From an uncultured Methylomonas sp. (lineage in GTDB: Bacteria > Pseudomonadota > Gammaproteobacteria > Methylococcales > Methylomonadaceae), in contig CAKZJE010000031.1 of the NCBI GenBank assembly GCA_936941155.1, positions 186,001 through 250,000 on the forward strand: 64,000 nucleotides of DNA. Reading direction: 5' to 3'. Both the position numbers and the translations under genes were made by a program. This document shows positions 12,299-21,271 of this stretch, in pieces. The stretch's first letter is position 1. Every line of letters starts with the position of its first letter. Below the pieces are notes generated by a model. That model made no database searches. It was not told where the DNA came from and was given only the letters and a program-made list of their open reading frames with translations.

Positions 12299-12934
12299 AT
12301 GAATCAAGAAAAGCGTTTGGCAATTTTTACGCGCCTTGCAGCTGCCATTCCTGAACCGACTACTGAGTTAATTTACACGTCTGTCTTTGAGTTGCTGATT
12401 GCGGTGGTTTTGTCGGCACAAGCAACGGATAAAAGCGTCAATAAAGCGACTGCGAAATTATTTCCGGTGGCAAATACGCCGCAAACTATTTTGGCTTTAG
12501 GGGAAGCGGGTTTAAAAGAATACGTCAAAACCATTGGGCTTTATAATAGTAAGGCGGCAAATATCATTAAACTCTGTCAAAGTTTACTTGAAAAACATCA
12601 AGGCGAAGTGCCGCAAACCCGTGCAGAGCTTGAGGCATTGGCGGGCGTGGGGCGTAAAACTGCAAATGTGATGTTAAATACCGCCTTTGGGCAGCCAACC
12701 ATTGCAGTCGATACGCATATATATAGAGTGGCAAATCGCACCGGAATTGCGCCGGGGAAAAATGTTTTAGAAGTTGAAAAAAAACTTGATAAAACCGTTC
12801 CCCAGCACCATAAACAAGATGCACACCATTTGCTTATCTTACATGGTCGTTATACTTGTATTGCCAGAAAGCCACGTTGCGGTAGTTGCGTGATAGAGGA
12901 TTTGTGCGAGTTTGCAGAAAAATCCACTGTGTAA
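12299..12934 (+). CDS. nth: Endonuclease III
   Basis: 211 residues, normal length. The helix-hairpin-helix LAGVGRKTANVML, catalytic Lys in that segment, catalytic Asp in TIAVDTHIYRVANR, and a C-terminal [4Fe-4S] ligand set C-x6-C-x2-C-x5-C (CIARKPRCGSCVIEDLC) are all present. It removes oxidised pyrimidines by base-excision repair and cleaves the abasic site. Monocistronic; the HvfA-like precursor starts 86 bp downstream. Confidence 0.96.
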   Translation: MNQEKRLAIFTRLAAAIPEPTTELIYTSVFELLIAVVLSAQATDKSVNKATAKLFPVANTPQTILALGEAGLKEYVKTIGLYNSKAANIIKLCQSLLEKHQGEVPQTRAELEALAGVGRKTANVMLNTAFGQPTIAVDTHIYRVANRTGIAPGKNVLEVEKKLDKTVPQHHKQDAHHLLILHGRYTCIARKPRCGSCVIEDLCEFAEKSTV

Positions 12935-13020
12935 AGTTGCAGTCCTGCATAAAACATTGTAAAACAAGCGTTTTTTTACAACAATAATAATTTATTCACC
13001 CTAACCCAAGAGGAAACACC

Positions 13021-13836
13021 ATGAAAAAATTTAATAAAAACTCGATAGCGACCATGATTGGCGCGGCGGTTGTTTCATCGTTTACTGGAAATGTGAACGC
13101 AGAAACAACGCCATTTGCCATGAATGAATTAGCGACTGGTTATAAACAAGCAGCTCCAGCACCCAAAGCAACCCCTGTTGTTAATAACAAAACAGCGGCA
13201 AAGCCTGTGGCAACACCTGCTGCTGGAAAAACTGGTGGCACATGTGCTGAAGGAAAATGCGGTGACATGATGAAACCTGCGGCAGCAGCAGCGACTGCAC
13301 CTGCAAAAGCGGAAGAAGGCAAATGCGGTGAAGCCAAATGCGGCGCAATGATGGAAAATGGCAAAATGAAAGCCGGTATGGAAATGGCTTGCGGCGCAAT
13401 GATGAAAGGCAAAGAAGGTTCTTGTGGTGACATGATGAATATGTCAGCACCGGCAGCCGCACATGCAGAACATGCAGAACATGCAGAACATGCAGCCGCT
13501 CCTGCGCCACAAGCTGCCGCTCCTGCAAAAGCAGCAGAAATGGCTTGCGGCGCAATGATGAAAGGCAAAGAAGGCTCTTGTGGTGAAATGTCACCCATGC
13601 ACGCAGCTCCCGCTCCTGCGCCTGTTGCCGCTGCACCAGCTCCTGTACAACACGCACAACATGCAGCTCCAGCTGCTGCGCCAGCAAAACCAGCCGCAGC
13701 ACCTGCTGCAACTGCTAACAAAGTGGTTGAGGGTCAATGCGCTGCTGTAAAAGAAATCAGCCATGATGCTCCAGAACACGCAGCCAATGGCAAAGCACAA
13801 CCTTGGGGCAATCGCAAAAAAATTGTTAATCCTTAA
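13021..13836 (+). CDS. hvfA: HvfA-like RiPP precursor (copper-binding metallophore, bufferin type)
   Basis: 271 residues with a Sec signal peptide cut near NVNA-ET (residue 27). The mature chain is low-complexity Ala/Pro/Lys/His sequence carrying nine Cys (75, 80, 102, 107, 124, 135, 176, 187, 240). The HvfA motif EGKCG occurs twice exactly (CAEGKCGDMM, EEGKCGEAKCGAMM), with variants KEGSCG twice and EGQCA. The 15-residue module MACGAMMKGKEGSCG is duplicated at 122-136 and 174-188. Genes for the MNIO maturase (DUF692) and its DUF2063 partner follow. In this family Cys residues in EGKCG are oxidised to oxazolone/thioamide groups that bind copper. GAGGAAA precedes the ATG. Copper role here is inferred from the family. 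Confidence 0.85.
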   Translation: MKKFNKNSIATMIGAAVVSSFTGNVNAETTPFAMNELATGYKQAAPAPKATPVVNNKTAAKPVATPAAGKTGGTCAEGKCGDMMKPAAAAATAPAKAEEGKCGEAKCGAMMENGKMKAGMEMACGAMMKGKEGSCGDMMNMSAPAAAHAEHAEHAEHAAAPAPQAAAPAKAAEMACGAMMKGKEGSCGEMSPMHAAPAPAPVAAAPAPVQHAQHAAPAAAPAKPAAAPAATANKVVEGQCAAVKEISHDAPEHAANGKAQPWGNRKKIVNP

Positions 13837-13862
13837 TTAACCCGCGTTATTTCTCATCGTTC

Positions 13863-13895
13863 AAACCTGACAGGTTTTTAAAATCTGTCAGGTTT
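13863..13895 (+). terminator. Intercistronic hairpin between precursor and maturase genes
   Basis: AAACCTGACAG and CTGTCAGGTTT arms followed by TTC. It sits 27 bp after the precursor stop and 24 bp before the DUF692 start. It probably acts as a partial terminator giving excess precursor over enzymes. The same sequence is a dispersed repeat (also 41847 and 52086). Confidence 0.65.
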
Positions 13896-13918
13896 TCTTG
13901 CATTGATAGGTATTCAAA

Positions 13919-14770
13919 ATGCGCACAACACAAAATCTGGTTCACGGCGCGGGCTTAGGCTTACGCCGAGCCTTTCTGTCTGAAATTGTTGAACACCCAC
14001 CTGTCGAAGTTGATTTTTACGAAGTTGCACCGGAAAACTGGATTACTATCGGCGGCAAGCTCGGCAAACAATTTCGTGCCATGACAGAACGCTTTAACTT
14101 TGTGGGACATGGATTATCCCTTTCGATTGGCAGCCGCGATCCTTTAGATGAAGACTTTGTGCGGGATGTGAAAAACTTTCTCGCCACACATCAAATCAAG
14201 TTTTACAGCGAACACTTAAGCTATTGCAGTCATCAAGGGCATTTGTACGATTTAATGCCGATTCCATTCACTAGCGAAGCTGTGCATCATGTCGCCCAAC
14301 GGATTAAGCGCGTGCAAGATATTCTGGAGCAAAAAATCGCCATCGAAAATGTTTCCTATTATGCCGCGCCTGGTCAGGAAATGAACGAAATCGAGTTTTT
14401 CAATGCCGTTGTGAATGAAGCCGATTGTGATGTGTTGCTGGATATTAATAATATTTACGTCAACAGCGTGAATCACGGTTATGACGCAATGGCGTTTTTA
14501 AAAGCGATTCCGGCACAACGAATTAGTTATGCGCACATTGCCGGGCATTATGTGGAAGCAGAAGATTTTTTAGTCGATACGCACGGCGCAACCGTGATTG
14601 ATCCGGTTTGGAATCTGCTCGCGAAAGCATACGAATTGTATGGCGTTTTTCCAACTTTGTTAGAACGCGATTTTAATATTCCCTCTATAGCGACTTTGGT
14701 TGACGAAGTTAGCACCATTAAATCCATTCAAACGGCGTGGAATACAGAACATGCAAAACAATCTGCTTAA
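13919..14770 (+). CDS. hvfB: MNIO-family RiPP maturase HvfB/BufB (DUF692)
   Basis: 283 residues, typical for DUF692. It has the TIM-barrel metal-binding signatures of multinuclear non-heme iron oxidative enzymes: FVGHGLSLSIG, SEHLSYCSHQG, ENVSYYA, LLDINNIYVN, SYAHIAGH and DTHG, which contribute His, Asp and Glu ligands. It is expected to oxidise Cys residues in the upstream EGKCG-bearing precursor. ATG 13919 is preceded by a modest AGG. It overlaps the DUF2063 gene by 20 bp, consistent with the usual HvfB-HvfC complex. Confidence 0.92.
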   Translation: MRTTQNLVHGAGLGLRRAFLSEIVEHPPVEVDFYEVAPENWITIGGKLGKQFRAMTERFNFVGHGLSLSIGSRDPLDEDFVRDVKNFLATHQIKFYSEHLSYCSHQGHLYDLMPIPFTSEAVHHVAQRIKRVQDILEQKIAIENVSYYAAPGQEMNEIEFFNAVVNEADCDVLLDINNIYVNSVNHGYDAMAFLKAIPAQRISYAHIAGHYVEAEDFLVDTHGATVIDPVWNLLAKAYELYGVFPTLLERDFNIPSIATLVDEVSTIKSIQTAWNTEHAKQSA

Positions 14771-15506
14771 TTTTCAACGCACTCAGCAGCAATTCGCCTC
14801 GTACATTAAAAACCCTCGTGTTAATCCAGCTCCCGCCGATGTGCGTCCTGAGCGCATGGCGATGTATCGAGAATTGTTTTTCAATAACGTGGAAAGTTTT
14901 TTGAGCACAGGATTTCCGGTGCTTCGCGCTATTTTAACTGATGCGCAATGGTTGAATTTGAGCGAAGATTTTTTTGCCACGCATCAAAGTCAATCGCCGT
15001 ATTTTTCTGAAATTTCTGAAGAGTTTTTAGAGTTTTTGCAAAACGAGCGGAATAATCCAGACGATTATCCGTTTATGTTGGAGCTGGCGCATTATGAATG
15101 GGTAGAAATGGCGTTGTCGATTTCGCAGGAACAATTGCCGCCATTTATGGAATATATTGATGATTTTATGGCGCAAAAAATCTTTGTGTCGCCCTTGGCA
15201 TGGGTGTTAGCTTATCGCTATCCGGTGCATGAGATTTCGCCAGAGTTTTTGCCTACTGAGCCGCCAGAGCAGCCAACGTATTTGATTGTGTATCGTGGTT
15301 CTGATGATGAGGTGCGTTTTATTCAAATTTCAGCGATTACGTTCAGATTATTACAAATTATTCAGGAAAAACCGCTGTTGACGGTTGAAGATTATTTGGA
15401 GCAAATGATTGATGAGGCAAAACAGATTAGTTCTGAAATGATTGTGGCGGGTGGATTGGATGCTCTGCAAAAAATGTTTGGCAAAAGTATTATTGCGATT
15501 GCTTAA
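14751..15506 (+). CDS. hvfC: RiPP maturation partner HvfC/BufC (DUF2063)
   Basis: 251 residues from ATG 14751 (MQNNLLNFQRTQQQFASYIKNP); a TTG at 14700 would add 17 atypical residues. The N-terminal DUF2063 helical domain (about 5-105, with RMAMYRELFFNNVESFLSTGFPVL) is characteristic, and the C-terminal half resembles RiPP-recognition-type domains in the family. It binds HvfB and presents the precursor. The start lies inside the last 20 bp of hvfB. No DoxX-type fourth gene follows, so the cluster is a minimal A-B-C set. Confidence 0.9.
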   Translation: MQNNLLNFQRTQQQFASYIKNPRVNPAPADVRPERMAMYRELFFNNVESFLSTGFPVLRAILTDAQWLNLSEDFFATHQSQSPYFSEISEEFLEFLQNERNNPDDYPFMLELAHYEWVEMALSISQEQLPPFMEYIDDFMAQKIFVSPLAWVLAYRYPVHEISPEFLPTEPPEQPTYLIVYRGSDDEVRFIQISAITFRLLQIIQEKPLLTVEDYLEQMIDEAKQISSEMIVAGGLDALQKMFGKSIIAIA

Positions 15507-15521
15507 AACTCAGGAGACATG

Positions 15522-16133
15522 ATGGCTTTCACCGATTTCAAATCCATTCAACAAGTGCAGCAGCTTTTTAAAATCAAATACTTGGAAGAGAATTATTTGG
15601 ATAGTGGCGAAATAGAGCCTTCTGCGGATTTTATTGCCGAGTTGAAATTTAATCGCCAATATTTGGATATTTTTTCTTCGGAAGCTTCACGTTGTGAGAA
15701 TGTGATTTATCCGATTTTGCGCGAAGTTTATAAACGGTATGCCGCAAATTATTCGCTTTGGAGTCACAAATCTTTGTCGTGTGATGAGGTTTTAAGTGGC
15801 ATTCCTGATTATTTGATTACATCACGTTCTGAGTTGGGTAAAAATATTTTGGGACAACCGATTGTGGTGGTTGTGGAGGCGAAACAGAATAATTTTACGG
15901 AAGGCTGGGGGCAATGTTTGGCGGAGTTGGTGGCGGCGCAGCGTTTAAATCAAGCGACTTTTCCGGTTTATGGCATTGTGACGGATGGTGAGGTTTGGCA
16001 TTTTGGTAAATTGGTTGAGCAAACGTTTATTAAAAATGAAAATGTGTTTGCTATTAATGAGTTAAGTAAAATTTTTGGCGCAATCAGTTTTATGATTGCT
16101 CAGGCGCAACAGTCGCTTTCTGATTCCTTGTAG
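15522..16133 (+). CDS. Putative PD-(D/E)XK-like nuclease
   Basis: 203 residues from ATG 15522, which AGGAG precedes by 5 bp (ATG 15519 is too close). The core GIPDYLITSRSE ... IVVVVEAKQNNFTEGWGQCL has the D ... E-x-K layout of PD-(D/E)XK nucleases, followed by a conserved GQCLAELVAAQRLN helix and YGIVTDGEVWHF strand. The same arrangement recurs in the gene at 55904. It sits directly before the ATPase/PIN pair with a 6-bp gap and may belong to that unit. It may also be part of the widespread orphan family of such proteins. Confidence 0.65.
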   Translation: MAFTDFKSIQQVQQLFKIKYLEENYLDSGEIEPSADFIAELKFNRQYLDIFSSEASRCENVIYPILREVYKRYAANYSLWSHKSLSCDEVLSGIPDYLITSRSELGKNILGQPIVVVVEAKQNNFTEGWGQCLAELVAAQRLNQATFPVYGIVTDGEVWHFGKLVEQTFIKNENVFAINELSKIFGAISFMIAQAQQSLSDSL

Positions 16134-16139
16134 AACATT

Positions 16140-17339
16140 ATGCACACCTTTAAGAATTTTAAGAATTTTGAATACGCTGAGATTGATTTGTCGAAACCGA
16201 TGACATTGTTGATTGGGCGCAATGGCGCAGGTAAATCAAATGTGATTGAAGGTGTGGAGTTATTGGCGGAGTTAATTAAAGGTCGAGAAGTTCATGAAAT
16301 ATCTGATGTAGAAAGAGGAGGAGATTTTGAAATTCGTGGAAGTTTACAAGGGTGTTTTCGGCAAGGTTATGAGAATTTTGAAATTTCTCTAAAAGATAAA
16401 GATATTCATTTTAGAGACGAATCATTCTATTGTTTTTGTCAAATAAGTCTTAAGCCAGTAATTAATAAAAAAGTTACTGATAATATAGAACGCATGGCGG
16501 AAAAGCATTATGACTATGATAATGATAGTCAAGGTTATGCAATGAACAATGGTGGTAGTGAATATATGGATTATTCTCCATTATTCTTTGGGGACTATTA
16601 CCAAGAATACCGAAATGAAGTGTTAAATAAATGGGGAAAAGTTTATGTCTACGACATTTATCCACGCATAATGCGGCAATATTCACCCATTGGATTAAAT
16701 CAATTAAGCAGAAATGGCGCAAATATATCTTCTGTACTTTATTATCTAAAGCAATATAAGCCTGATGTTTTAGATTATATTTTAAAAAATATAAGACAAC
16801 TCCCCGAAGAAGCTTTTGAAAGCTTTGAATTTATAGAAACCTCTGATGATAGTGAAATATTATTCGCCTTAAAATATCCCAATACTGAAAAACCAATCAG
16901 CGCGAAATTATTATCCGATGGCACGCTCCGCGCTTTAGCCATTCTCACCGCTTTAGAAACCGTACCCGAAGGCTCACGCATTATCATTGAAGAAATAGAT
17001 AATGGTATTCATCCTTCAAAAGCCAATATGTTAATTAATGCAATATGGGAAAGAAGCAAAGAACGAAAACTAAATACTTTAATTACCACGCACAATCCTG
17101 CCACTTTAGATAGCTTAAATAATGAACAACTTGAATGTGTCGTGGTTTGTCATTACGATAAACAAAGCCAATCCGCAAAATTAACGCCGTTTTTTGAATT
17201 GCCGCGTATTGATGTGTTATTGCAAAAAGGCAAATTAGGCGGATTAGTCACTCGTAATGTTATTGAACGTTATTTAGATCCAGAATTTGAAAATGAGCAA
17301 CGAAAAATTGCCTTAGAATGGCTGGAGTCTTGTAAATGA
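16140..17339 (+). CDS. AAA_21/OLD-like ATPase, partner of PIN nuclease
   Basis: 399 residues. The N-terminus FKNFEYAEIDL ... MTLLIGRNGAGKSN (Walker A at 26-33) is the SMC/RecF-like start. The C-terminal half has an ABC-type signature LLSDGTLRALAIL, Walker B RIIIEEIDNGIHP and H-loop TLITTHNPATL. No TOPRIM or nuclease domain is fused. The middle (about 90-210) is AT-rich, Tyr/Asn-rich and unfamiliar. It overlaps the PIN gene by 4 bp (ATGA), so the two are translationally coupled. Such ATPase plus nuclease pairs are common in anti-phage systems; this combination is not one I can name. Confidence 0.8.
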   Translation: MHTFKNFKNFEYAEIDLSKPMTLLIGRNGAGKSNVIEGVELLAELIKGREVHEISDVERGGDFEIRGSLQGCFRQGYENFEISLKDKDIHFRDESFYCFCQISLKPVINKKVTDNIERMAEKHYDYDNDSQGYAMNNGGSEYMDYSPLFFGDYYQEYRNEVLNKWGKVYVYDIYPRIMRQYSPIGLNQLSRNGANISSVLYYLKQYKPDVLDYILKNIRQLPEEAFESFEFIETSDDSEILFALKYPNTEKPISAKLLSDGTLRALAILTALETVPEGSRIIIEEIDNGIHPSKANMLINAIWERSKERKLNTLITTHNPATLDSLNNEQLECVVVCHYDKQSQSAKLTPFFELPRIDVLLQKGKLGGLVTRNVIERYLDPEFENEQRKIALEWLESCK

Positions 17340-17839
17340 AAAAGCCTGTTTATGTGGTAGATACTAGCTATTTGGTTGAATATTACAAAGTTGATGGTCA
17401 TTACAAAGAAAACTCACATCACCAAATATGGCAACGTTTTGATTCAGCTATTAAAAATAAAAATTCACTTTATATTCCAGTACCGATTATTTTTGAATTA
17501 GCCAATCATATTGCTCATGTTAAAGATGGAAACAATCGTCAAAAATTAGCTGAACGATTTGTTTCTGATATTCAAAATAGTTTAACAAAAGACTCTCCGT
17601 TTAATTTAGTCCCATGCCAAGATTTTCAGTCGATTGAAGAATTAGCTAAAAATTTAGTCGAATTCTCCAGTCGTTACGCTAAACAGGGTTTAGGACTAAC
17701 AGATACTGCTGTTTATTTACAAGCTGAACAGCTTTTTCAATCTTATAAACGCCTTAAAAACTACAGCGTTCATATTTGGACTCGCGATGAAGCCTTAAAA
17801 GCTCTCGAACCCGATACAGAACAAAACCCATTTGTCTAA
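17336..17839 (+). CDS. PIN-domain nuclease
   Basis: 167 residues. All four acidic positions of a PIN ribonuclease are visible: D9 (YVVDTSYLVE), E54 (IIFELANHI), D123 (GLGLTDTAV) and D151 (HIWTRDEAL). Length is a little above the usual VapC size. Instead of a small antitoxin, the preceding gene is an ABC-like ATPase, overlapping by 4 bp, which suggests ATPase-controlled nuclease activity and not a classic VapBC pair. Confidence 0.8.
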   Translation: MKKPVYVVDTSYLVEYYKVDGHYKENSHHQIWQRFDSAIKNKNSLYIPVPIIFELANHIAHVKDGNNRQKLAERFVSDIQNSLTKDSPFNLVPCQDFQSIEELAKNLVEFSSRYAKQGLGLTDTAVYLQAEQLFQSYKRLKNYSVHIWTRDEALKALEPDTEQNPFV

Positions 17840-17981
17840 AAGCTAATCATTCCAAAGCTATTTACAAAAAATTTGCACGCTTAAAACAATCAACAGAACA
17901 AGCTTGTTGTTAGAAAGGATTCATTAATTTTGCAATTTCTTCTGGCGATTTCAGCTAGTTTTCAATCAAATTTGCCAAACA

Positions 17982-19196
17982 TCAATCATTAAAATATCCG
18001 GCATCATACGCCATGCTGAACTCTTTAAAATCCTTTTGCACTTGCCGCGCATAACTCATACTGTAATTCATCAACTCTTCGCCCCATTCAGGAAAAATAC
18101 TGGCAAAATGAATTAACTCATCGGCTGTCGCAGAACCCGACCGCCCACCACTACGCAATTGATCCCACGCCAAAATTTCAGCAAACGTCTCAATCACATT
18201 TTTAATCTCTTCCACCTTGCCTTTGCACAGAGTTAAATCCATTTTATCCTGACTTGGTTGCAACTCTTTTAACACAAACCATTGTTTATCAAACTTAATT
18301 GCGCTCAATAACGCCTGCGGAAAAATCTGCATTTGCCGTTGAATTTGAATCACTCTATCCGCTTCATTTTTCCAAAACGGCTGCTTCATTTTTAAATACG
18401 GAGTTAAACAGGAAGGATTTGCGATTTTCATATCCAATAAATGATGTTTTTCCGCGCCTTTGCCTTTCACTAACAACACATATCGTTCTAAACCTAAGCT
18501 ACCCGTGCCGGCAATGCGATAGCCAACATCTAAAACTTTATCAAATTCAGACAATTGCTGCGTTTTTGCCCATTCGCTAATCACTTTTTTAATTTGCTGT
18601 TTTTTCGCTTTGCCAATTTTGCAAACATGCTCTGCATTAATCAGTAACTTGCGTTTATCGTCAATTTTCACGGTGCGGCTATTGATAAATTCTTTTCTTT
18701 TTCTGGAACTAACTGATTCTAAAAACTTTTTTAATGTGCCTTGTGCGAATTTTTCTTCCATCAATCGTGCAGAACCCGCTTGCAAAGTCTGCGTGTAGGT
18801 TTTTAAAAAGTGTTTACACAATTGCACCGCTGTCGGTAAATCAATTTTCAGCGTATCTGCACTTAACAGCAGGCTGGTTAATAATCGCGCCACATCCCAT
18901 AAACACGGAGCTAAAACGCTTTCGTCAAAATCATTAATGTCAAAATAAACGCCGCGATTATCGGCTTGATAACAGCCAAAATTTTCCAAATGCAAATCGC
19001 CACAAACCCAGACCGGCGGAGCTAAATCAAAAAACGATTTGCTCGGTAAATCTTCATAAAACAAATGACAAGAGCCGCGATAAAACACAAAAGCATTGCT
19101 GCGCATATTTTTGTATTTCATTTGCAATACGTCTGGATTTCTACCGCTGTTAAATTGTTTGATTCTTTTTGCGATGGTTTGGGTCTCTTCGCTCAT
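17982..19196 (-). CDS. DUF2252 family protein
   Basis: 404 residues from ATG 19196 (MSEETQTIAKRIKQFNSGRNP), preceded by AAAGGC; a longer frame from 19238 adds an unlikely leader. The DUF2252 hallmarks are present: NAFVFYRGSCHLFYEDL, VWVCGDLHLENFG and YFDINDFDES, which together form a protein-kinase-like (aminoglycoside phosphotransferase) fold with a putative HxxN and DxD metal site. Substrate unknown. Single gene, with a GTAGAGACG hairpin repeat between it and the P-type ATPase gene. Confidence 0.9.
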   Translation of the reverse strand: MSEETQTIAKRIKQFNSGRNPDVLQMKYKNMRSNAFVFYRGSCHLFYEDLPSKSFFDLAPPVWVCGDLHLENFGCYQADNRGVYFDINDFDESVLAPCLWDVARLLTSLLLSADTLKIDLPTAVQLCKHFLKTYTQTLQAGSARLMEEKFAQGTLKKFLESVSSRKRKEFINSRTVKIDDKRKLLINAEHVCKIGKAKKQQIKKVISEWAKTQQLSEFDKVLDVGYRIAGTGSLGLERYVLLVKGKGAEKHHLLDMKIANPSCLTPYLKMKQPFWKNEADRVIQIQRQMQIFPQALLSAIKFDKQWFVLKELQPSQDKMDLTLCKGKVEEIKNVIETFAEILAWDQLRSGGRSGSATADELIHFASIFPEWGEELMNYSMSYARQVQKDFKEFSMAYDAGYFND

Positions 19197-19257
19197 TTTT
19201 TTTGCCTTTTGTGTTTTGATGAATAACGCAGTAAACAAAGTTTTGCTATTATTTGGC

Positions 19258-19285
19258 GTAGAGACGCAAAATATTGCGTCTCTAC
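19258..19285. repeat. GTAGAGACG hairpin repeat, copy 1
   Basis: GTAGAGACGCAA and TTGCGTCTCTAC arms with a 4-base loop. Same family at 50863 and, with a different inner stem, 32188. Confidence 0.85.
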
Positions 19286-19306
19286 AGGGTGAAAAAAATC
19301 AATTCG

Positions 19307-21271
19307 TTATTTTTTAGAAATATCTGCATAATCAGAAAGTGTTTTTGGTGGAATTGCCGCCCGCAACGCATTTAACACCGCTAACACATCAATCACTTCT
19401 TGAGCGATTGCGCCTGCAACTGGCGTTAAATAACCTAATCCCGCAAAAACCATTCCGACCACACTTAACGCCATGCCGCCAACCGCCGATTGCAACGCAA
19501 TGGAGCGCATTCTTTCACCGATGTGCAGCAGCTCATCGACTTTTATCAAAGAGCTATTCATAATCACGGCATCGGCGGATTCAGCAGTAATATCGCTGTT
19601 TTTACCAAACGCGATTCCAATTGTGGCAGCGGTTAAAGCCGGCGCATCATTAATGCCGTCGCCTAAAAAGACCGTTTTTGCTTTTGCGGTTTCTTCACGC
19701 ACCAATTGCAATTTTTGCTCAGGGCTTTGACTGAAATAAACGTGCTCAATCCCCACTTGCTCGGCTAAATAACGCACTTCGGATTCTCTATCGCCTGACA
19801 CCAGCATCACCCGATCAAATAAATGATTTGGTTGTAAGTGATTGATAAAGTCAGAACTATCGCTGCGCACTTCATCGCGAAATTGCAAAGTCGCGGCGTA
19901 TTCACCATTTATCAGCACGATACATTCCAAGCCTCCACACAAGGCTGGCAATAGGTTTTCTGCATCGGCTTTCAGCGTTAAAAAATGTTTGCGACTGGTG
20001 ATTTGCACTTTTTTACCCGCTACATCACCTATCAAACCACTGCCGGGAAGTTCTTTAATATCAGCGACTTCCAATAAATTAATCTCAGCTTGTTCAGCGG
20101 CTGTCACAATCGCATGAGAGAGCGGGTGTTTTGAATAGCGTTCTAGGCTGGCAACTAATGCTAAAACATCGGTTTCCGCATAAGCAGAACTCGGAATTAA
20201 CGCGGTTAAAGACGGGCGACCATAAGTCAACGTGCCGGTTTTATCAAAAATAGCCGTGCGACAAGTGCCGATGGTTTCCAAAATGGCTGGATTTTTGATG
20301 ATAATTTCGCGTTTTGCTGCCAATGAAATCGAGCTGATAATGGTTACAGGAATGCCAATCAGCAAAGGGCAGGGCGTAGCAATCACTAACACCGCTAAAA
20401 ATCGCACTTCGTCTCCACTGATAAACCAAGCTAGCAAAGCTAAAAATACCGCAATCGGCGTGTATAAAGCTCCGAGTTGATCCCCTAAACGGCGCAATTT
20501 TGGGCGATGTTCTTCAGAGGAGCGCATCACTTCCATGATTTTGGCATAGCGTGAATCAATCGCGAGTTTATCGGCGCGAATCGTCAACGCCGCATCACCA
20601 TTAATTGCGCCCGACAACACTTGCGAGCCACACACTTTCGACATCATATACGGCTCACCGGTTAAGTAAGATTCATCCATTGTGCCTGAACCATCGAGCA
20701 CTGAGCCATCCACCGGACAAATTTCATGTGGCAAAACCAATAAAGTGTCGCCAATTTTGACTTCTTCTGTGCCAATATCCACCAGCTTGTTATCGGTTTT
20801 ACGGTGCGCAATCGAAGGCATTCGATTTGCTAACGCCTCTAATACGGATGAGGCTTTGCGCACGGCGTAAGATTCTAAAACCGAACCGCCCGATAACATC
20901 AGCACCACCAAACTTCCGGCTAAATATTCATCCAACCAAACTGAGGTGACAATGGAAATGCCGGCTAATAAATCCGCGCCCATATTCCCTTGCAATAATT
21001 TCGCTATCAGCTCATACACCAACGGCAAACCGCCCCAAATCAACACAAAAAGTAACGGCAAATCAAACAGCGAAAGTTGATAACTTAATTGTCCATTGTA
21101 AATATGCAGGCTGGGCGAGGCTAAATCGGTGTGAATAGTGAGAATATAAAGGTCGTCTTCAATTTGGAAGCCATAGCGAAGCAGCAAAAAAATCACAATG
21201 CCTATTAAACTTAATAGCGCGATTTTAGTTTCACTGCTGATTGTGTTTTTTGCGTGAGAAGATGGATTCAT
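19307..21271 (-). CDS. P1B-type heavy-metal-transporting ATPase
   Basis: 654 residues. The phosphorylation motif [13 protein letters not shown] (YLTGEPYMM), SKHPLSHAI (the HP dipeptide of P1B pumps) and [10 protein letters not shown] are present. The metal-site helix reads [13 protein letters not shown], i.e. TPC instead of the CPC of copper/zinc pumps. No N-terminal HMA domain is visible. TPC-type P1B pumps have been linked to nickel, iron or manganese rather than copper, so the substrate is uncertain. The C-terminal helix [13 protein letters not shown] is typical of the CadA/ZntA side of the family. Monocistronic. Confidence 0.88.

What the first reader, a model, noticed from the sequence alone, without database searches (positions are those of the whole stretch)
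16140..17839. Coupled ABC-like ATPase and PIN nuclease: candidate undescribed defence or toxin system
An AAA_21/OLD-like ATPase with all nucleotide motifs overlaps by 4 bp a PIN protein with four intact catalytic acids. Known ATPase-plus-effector defence pairs use HNH, TOPRIM or other nucleases; I cannot match an ATPase-PIN pair of this build to a named system. The preceding nuclease-like gene (15522) lies 6 bp upstream and may be a third component.
Basis: partly seen in the sequence, partly recalled or inferred. Interest (0 to 1): 0.65.

Follow-up and report, generated by a model that had tools for sequence, protein, structure and literature searches.

The report
ATPase–PIN nuclease defence candidate PDC-M07
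Two overlapping genes, an SMC/PtuA-like ATPase and a PIN-fold nuclease, form a widespread, mobile two-gene unit that a public catalogue already lists as an untested anti-phage candidate; it probably stops infected cells by cutting RNA once the ATPase senses infection.

Summary
In detail: a 399-aa AAA_21/ABC ATPase (16140-17339) overlaps by 4 bp a 167-aa PIN protein (17336-17839) with four catalytic acids. The pair is real and strongly co-conserved: of the 80 best ATPase relatives found in 84,980 species genomes, 77 have the PIN gene directly downstream; two others are cut by contig ends and one carries a broken PIN remnant. It spans many bacterial phyla and an archaeal genome bin, plasmids and viral contigs, and the two proteins co-diverge (r 0.91). 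It is not unrecorded: PADLOC's models call every member tested PDC-M07A (84 of 84) and PDC-M07B (78 of 78), a phage defence candidate; I found no paper that tests it. The predicted ATPase fold is closest to PtuA (Septu, retron I-A), tied with Rad50/SMC heads; the PIN weakly resembles VapC toxins. Best explanation: abortive-infection module in which a PtuA/AriA-like ATPase holds and, on infection, licenses a PIN ribonuclease. The upstream nuclease-like gene is not a component: it belongs to a multicopy lineage family and is missing beside the pair elsewhere. New member of a known but uncharacterised kind.

The parts
16140..17339 (+). ABC/AAA_21 ATPase, 399 aa, PDC-M07A family, PtuA/Rad50-head-like fold
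   Evidence: ORF; PADLOC PDC-M07A 1.4e-92; Pfam AAA_21 2.4e-23; AlphaFold2 model mean pLDDT 86.8; closest folds PtuA and Rad50/SMC heads
16215..16241 (+). Walker A, GRNGAGKSN (residues 26-34)
16908..16931 (+). ABC signature-like motif LLSDGTLR (residues 257-264); S, D, G, T, R invariant in 84 rows
16980..17021 (+). Walker B and following motif IIIEEIDNGIHPSK (residues 281-294)
17336..17839 (+). PIN-fold nuclease, 167 aa, PDC-M07B family; starts inside the ATPase stop (ATGA overlap)
   Evidence: ORF; PADLOC PDC-M07B 2.1e-49; AlphaFold2 model mean pLDDT 94.8; weak matches to VapC PIN toxins
17360..17362 (+). PIN catalytic acid 1, D9 (82 of 84 PINs)
17495..17497 (+). PIN catalytic acid 2, E54, in the family motif E-x-x-N-H-I (81 of 84)
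17702..17704 (+). PIN catalytic acid 3, D123 (77 of 84, 5 gaps)
17786..17788 (+). PIN catalytic acid 4, D151 (72 of 84, 5 gaps, 4 His)

Best explanation
A stand-alone, horizontally moving two-gene defence module (PADLOC candidate PDC-M07). The ABC ATPase forms a PtuA/AriA-like oligomer that binds the PIN nuclease and keeps it idle; on phage infection an ATP-dependent change in the ATPase frees or licenses the PIN active site, which cuts RNA, most likely tRNA, and stops growth before phage mature. Shown here: the pair, its motifs, its linkage, its co-inheritance, its mobility and its company. Inferred: complex formation, the trigger, RNA as substrate, and abortive infection.
For: Linkage from both sides: ATPase to PIN in 77 of 80 loci, no intact counterexample; PIN to ATPase in 14 of 15 PIN matches in 398 genomes; 6 of 6 viral-contig ATPases with E at or below 1e-30. 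PIN start overlaps the ATPase stop by 4 nt in 34 and 8 nt in 17 of 83 pairs. Co-divergence r = 0.91 over 76 pairs, largest of 2000 permutations 0.22. Catalytic motifs conserved in both partners. ATPase model best matches PtuA of Septu and retron I-A (Foldseek E 9e-13; VIA Z 19.8, rmsd 3.3, 268 aligned, tied with Rad50/SMC heads); PIN model matches VapC (Z 7.1, rmsd 4.5, 82 aligned). Defence company: 74 PADLOC families at E at or below 1e-20 among 140 neighbour ORFs against 9 among 140 control ORFs; on two plasmids the pair sits between hsdS and hsdR. Patchy: 13 of 398 genomes of the phylum, own genome included. In Septu both the ATPase and the HNH active sites are needed, and tRNA-Tyr is cut (PMC13096335, passages).
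Against: No experiment. No complex was modelled. The PIN-VapC match is weak (Foldseek E 0.05; Z under 8), and a fold match shows no substrate. In the window and in the nearest relatives the pair lies among ordinary genes, not in a defence island. 14 of 84 PINs lack at least one of the four acids in the alignment, some because the frame is broken or cut; one more PIN (L023) has lost the Glu. Another PADLOC candidate pair tested in its native host gave no defence (PDC-M63AB, PMC12409345, passages).
Confidence: 0.6

Rival explanations
1. Toxin-antitoxin / addiction module: the PIN is a VapC-like toxin and the ATPase its antitoxin, kept because loss is lethal, with no anti-phage role.
For: PIN fold nearest to VapC toxins; two overlapping genes, on plasmids including a 9.1-kb mobilizable one; no intact PIN without the ATPase in the loci read.
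Against: VapBC antitoxins are small DNA-binding proteins (recalled); here the partner is a 399-aa ATPase with invariant nucleotide motifs, of the fold used by defence ATPases. Antitoxin-like and sensor roles are not exclusive.
Confidence: 0.2
2. Guard of another defence system: a second layer that fires when restriction-modification or BREX is blocked by a phage inhibitor, as PrrC or PARIS respond to anti-restriction proteins (recalled).
For: Embedded between hsdS and hsdR on Photobacterium and Vibrio plasmids; Hsd relatives within the flanks of 8 of 80 loci, 0 of 20 control regions; BREX genes among the neighbours; a distantly related ATPase plus 189-aa gene between pglX and pglZ on an E. coli plasmid.
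Against: 72 of 80 loci show no Hsd neighbour by this test, and in the window and its nearest relatives the pair stands alone.
Confidence: 0.15
3. DNA-targeting module: the PtuA-like ATPase senses or binds phage DNA and the PIN-fold enzyme acts as a structure-specific DNA nuclease.
For: ATPase head is equally close to Rad50/SMC; [quoted passage not shown]
Against: The nearest PIN matches are mostly VapC toxins, described as tRNA cutters (PMC13092281, passage); no DNA-binding domain was seen among the family matches.
Confidence: 0.1
4. Three-gene system with the upstream nuclease-like gene (15519-16133).
For: 6-bp spacing and same strand.
Against: That gene family has 22 matches in this genome and 28 in G398, but none in 35 of 41 genomes searched; no match better than E 0.3 in the 95 loci L039-L133, and only the window's own copy in the loci.
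Confidence: 0.03

Closest known systems
PADLOC PDC-M07 (phage defence candidate, PDC-M07A + PDC-M07B)
   Same: Both proteins are best matched by these models; every relative tested matches them too.
   Different: Nothing that I could test; the entry is a catalogued candidate without a described mechanism in the papers searched.
Septu (PtuA + PtuB) and retron I-A effectors
   Same: PtuA-like ATPase gene next to a nuclease gene; closest solved folds.
   Different: Partner is PIN, not HNH; the ATPase is far below the PtuA cut-off of NCBIfam (34 against 500 bits).
PARIS (AriA + AriB)
   Same: ABC ATPase plus separate nuclease gene; an AriA model hits the ATPase at 1.7e-22. AriB cuts tRNA (PMC12409363, abstract).
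   Different: AriB is a TOPRIM nuclease; the ATPase fits PDC-M07A far better (309 against 79 bits).
ptuXYZ (proposed defence operon, PMC11980606, section read)
   Same: PtuA-like ATPase next to a protein with a PIN-like fold.
   Different: There the PIN-like domain lacks catalytic residues and is fused to a BECR RNase, and a DUF262 gene leads the operon; here the PIN is single-domain with conserved acids.
VapC toxins of VapBC
   Same: PIN fold and four acids.
   Different: No small DNA-binding antitoxin; below the Pfam PIN cut-off.

Membership tests
PADLOC PDC-M07 | ATPase best matched by PDC-M07A models | tested here: met
   1.4e-92, next family HEC-01A 1.3e-36; 84 of 84 members of A4
PADLOC PDC-M07 | Partner best matched by PDC-M07B models | tested here: met
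   2.1e-49, only PDC-M07B listed; 78 of 78 members of A5
PADLOC PDC-M07 | The two genes adjacent | tested here: met
   4-bp overlap; 77 of 80 loci
PADLOC PDC-M07 | Anti-phage activity | not testable with these tools
   needs phage challenge
Septu | PtuA ATPase by sequence model | tested here: not met
   PADLOC PtuA 2.3e-15 against PDC-M07A 1.4e-92; NCBIfam PtuA 34 bits, cut-off 500; the fold is PtuA-like
Septu | HNH partner PtuB | tested here: not met
   partner matches PDC-M07B only and has a PIN-like fold
PARIS | AriB TOPRIM partner | tested here: not met
   partner is the PDC-M07B PIN
ptuXYZ | PIN-like domain fused to BECR RNase, after a DUF262 gene | tested here: not met
   167-aa protein without room for a second domain; upstream gene has no Pfam match
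VapBC toxin-antitoxin | PIN protein with four acids | tested here: met
VapBC toxin-antitoxin | Small DNA-binding antitoxin next to the toxin | tested here: not met
   ATPase upstream, DUF2252 gene on the other strand downstream
Housekeeping module | Near-universal in relatives | tested here: not met
   PIN model in 13 of 398 phylum genomes including this one, 0 of 14 control genomes
OLD nuclease | TOPRIM domain after the ATPase | tested here: not met
   no such Pfam match, protein ends at 399 aa

The most novel reading that the evidence does not exclude
PDC-M07 is a separate class of ABC-ATPase-gated immunity in which the effector is an intact PIN ribonuclease, working both alone and as an RM/BREX-embedded guard that fires when the host system is inhibited; it would add PIN to the HNH, TOPRIM and BECR effectors known or proposed for PtuA/AriA-like ATPases.
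Probability: 0.4. Interest if true: 0.55.

Novelty: new member of a known kind. Interest (0 to 1): 0.38.

Why it matters
It suggests that the PtuA/AriA type of ATPase has a further, very widely spread nuclease partner, and gives a compact two-gene unit, present even on small plasmids, in which ATPase control of a PIN RNase can be tested directly. A catalogued but undescribed candidate gains here a linkage, conservation and structure case and a testable mechanism.

Tried and rejected
Third component: rejected. OLD membership: rejected. 'Unrecorded system': rejected because of PADLOC. Phage records: tblastn of the PIN against 50,697 phage records gave no match; a single-sequence scan of viral contigs gave none, an alignment-based one gave 15 loci, 6 of them with the pair. 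The PIN profile against PDB sequences gave only two chance-level matches. Promoter and terminator scans are at chance level (15 found, 13.7 expected; 7 found, 5.2 expected); no Rfam match in 12900-19500. Low GC of the pair (0.34 and 0.33 against 0.45 for hvfABC and 0.40 for the window) fits transfer, but other parts of the window dip as low, so I give it little weight. Papers: 'PDC-M07' is in no held paper; searches listed no paper whose title or abstract start, or the passages I opened, describe an ABC-ATPase plus active PIN pair. The library holds few preprints; the preprint that introduced the PDC names (Payne 2024, seen only as a reference) and the ABC-ATPase classification of Krishnan 2020 (not held) could not be read, so prior description there cannot be excluded.

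The Hsd test used one diverged query set and undercounts; the flanks total 1.28 Mb against 0.30 Mb of control. L053 was left out of A4 because its contig ends inside the gene; PINs under 135 aa were left out of A5.

Full report
What is there. Pfam gives AAA_21 (2.4e-23) and AAA_15 for the first and only a sub-threshold PIN match (19.0 against a cut-off of 23.6 bits) for the second. PADLOC-DB names both: PDC-M07A at 1.4e-92 and PDC-M07B at 2.1e-49. So this is a catalogued phage defence candidate, not an unrecorded pair.

Is the pair real? In 77 of 80 a PIN reading frame follows directly on the same strand; in a few of these it is broken or cut (L081, L085, L098, L107, L109). Of the other three, L043 ends 79 bases after the ATPase, L053 ends inside it, and L111 has the first residues of a PIN followed by stops, a broken copy. 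Coming from the other side, the PIN model matched 15 places in 13 of 398 genomes of the phylum, this genome included; 14 of 15 have the ATPase next door, the exception L021 being a lone PIN fragment beside another gene. On plasmids, all six PIN hits lie next to an ATPase (four of the six read), and two ATPase hits without a listed PIN hit turned out to have one. Among 15 viral-contig loci, the six with ATPase E at or below 1e-30 have the PIN and the other nine, weaker, do not. The start of PIN overlaps the ATPase stop by 4 nt in 34 and 8 nt in 17 of 83 pairs. Pairwise distances of the two proteins correlate at 0.91 over 76 pairs; the largest of 2000 permutations was 0.22. They travel and change as one unit.

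Are both active? In the 84-row ATPase alignment the signature S-D-G-T-x-R, E284, E285, D287 and H318 are invariant, and Walker A G, N, G, K, N are present in all 82 rows with letters there. In 84 PINs the four acids are kept in 82, 81, 77 and 72 rows; 14 rows lack at least one, several through broken or cut frames, and His replaces the fourth acid in 4. One further copy (L023) keeps a PIN-like ORF without the Glu.

Structure. The PIN model is confident (mean pLDDT 94.8). Foldseek's best PDB match is a VapC (E 0.05); VIA gives Z 7.1, rmsd 4.5, 82 aligned for the same chain, with an unrelated protein at Z 6.4, so the fold call is plausible but weak on structure alone. The ATPase model (mean pLDDT 86.8, with residues 109-115 and 124-149 under pLDDT 50) matches PtuA of Septu and retron I-A first (Foldseek E 9e-13; Z 19.8, rmsd 3.3, 268 aligned), tied with Rad50 and SMC heads.

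Where it lives. Relatives span Methylococcaceae (which by kinship and names is probably the host's own group), Pseudomonas, Halomonas, cyanobacteria, Paenibacillus, Clostridia, Bacteroidetes, Chloroflexota, Planctomycetes, Myxococcales and a Methanosaeta bin. In the window it follows hvfABC; in seven relatives the 1.5 kb after hvfC hold no such pair. In the nearest relatives read it stands beside different ordinary genes each time. A same-genus genome (G399) lacks a strong ATPase match (best 2.9e-18). Elsewhere it keeps defence company: 140 neighbour ORFs hit 74 PADLOC families at E at or below 1e-20, with BREX, Zorya, Mokosh, Shango and Dpd names (recalled meanings of the model names), against 9 families for 140 control ORFs; Hsd relatives occur in 8 of 80 flanks and 0 of 20 controls; two plasmids carry it between hsdS and hsdR. 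This is enrichment, not a rule.

The upstream gene. The nuclease-like ORF 15519-16133 (PADLOC PD_DExK) has 22 matches in this genome, 28 in G398, 11 in G407, 7 in G399, and none in 35 of 41 genomes. It was not seen beside the pair in any other locus. It is a neighbour.

How it most likely works. Septu needs both its ATPase and nuclease sites and cuts tRNA-Tyr during infection (PMC13096335, passages), as does the PtuAB effector of retron-Eco7 (PMC11555353, passages); AriB of PARIS is a tRNA-cutting nuclease (PMC12409363, abstract); VapC PINs cut tRNA, and PIN active sites are needed in two tested systems of other build, DS-3 and DS-5 (PMC13092281, passages). By analogy the ATPase here holds and licenses a PIN RNase that stops the infected cell. 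The complex, trigger and substrate are inference.

Novelty. The family is in PADLOC; the term PDC-M07 is in no held paper, and the other searches showed no functional description. The nearest published proposal that I read, ptuXYZ, has a PIN-like domain without catalytic residues fused to a BECR RNase (PMC11980606, section read). The locus is a new member of a known, untested kind.

Noticed in passing
window 15519-16133: A PD-(D/E)XK-like gene family is expanded in this lineage: 22 matches in this genome, 28 in G398, 11 in G407, 7 in G399, none in 35 of 41 genomes searched. No Pfam or PDB match; why it multiplies is unexplained.
   Followed up: partly
L188 3980-5664 (E. coli plasmid NZ_CP010234.1): A distantly related AAA ATPase (25% identity) with a 189-aa hypothetical gene sits between pglX and pglZ of a BREX operon: another ATPase plus small-protein pair embedded in a defence operon.
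   Followed up: no
L134 3983-5760, L135 3974-5751: On Photobacterium damselae and Vibrio campbellii plasmids the ATPase-PIN pair lies between hsdS and hsdR of a type I restriction operon.
   Followed up: partly
L023, L068, L111: Copies with a degenerate or broken PIN beside an apparently intact ATPase, which suggests that the PIN can be lost first.
   Followed up: no
window 13021-15506: An hvfABC-type RiPP cluster (HvfB MNIO maturase, HvfC partner) with a long, Cys-containing, repetitive 271-aa precursor-like ORF.
   Followed up: no
L055 9230-9629: A small AbrB-like ORF and a short PIN-like ORF, resembling a VapBC remnant, lie just upstream of an ATPase-PIN pair (assignment by eye).
   Followed up: no
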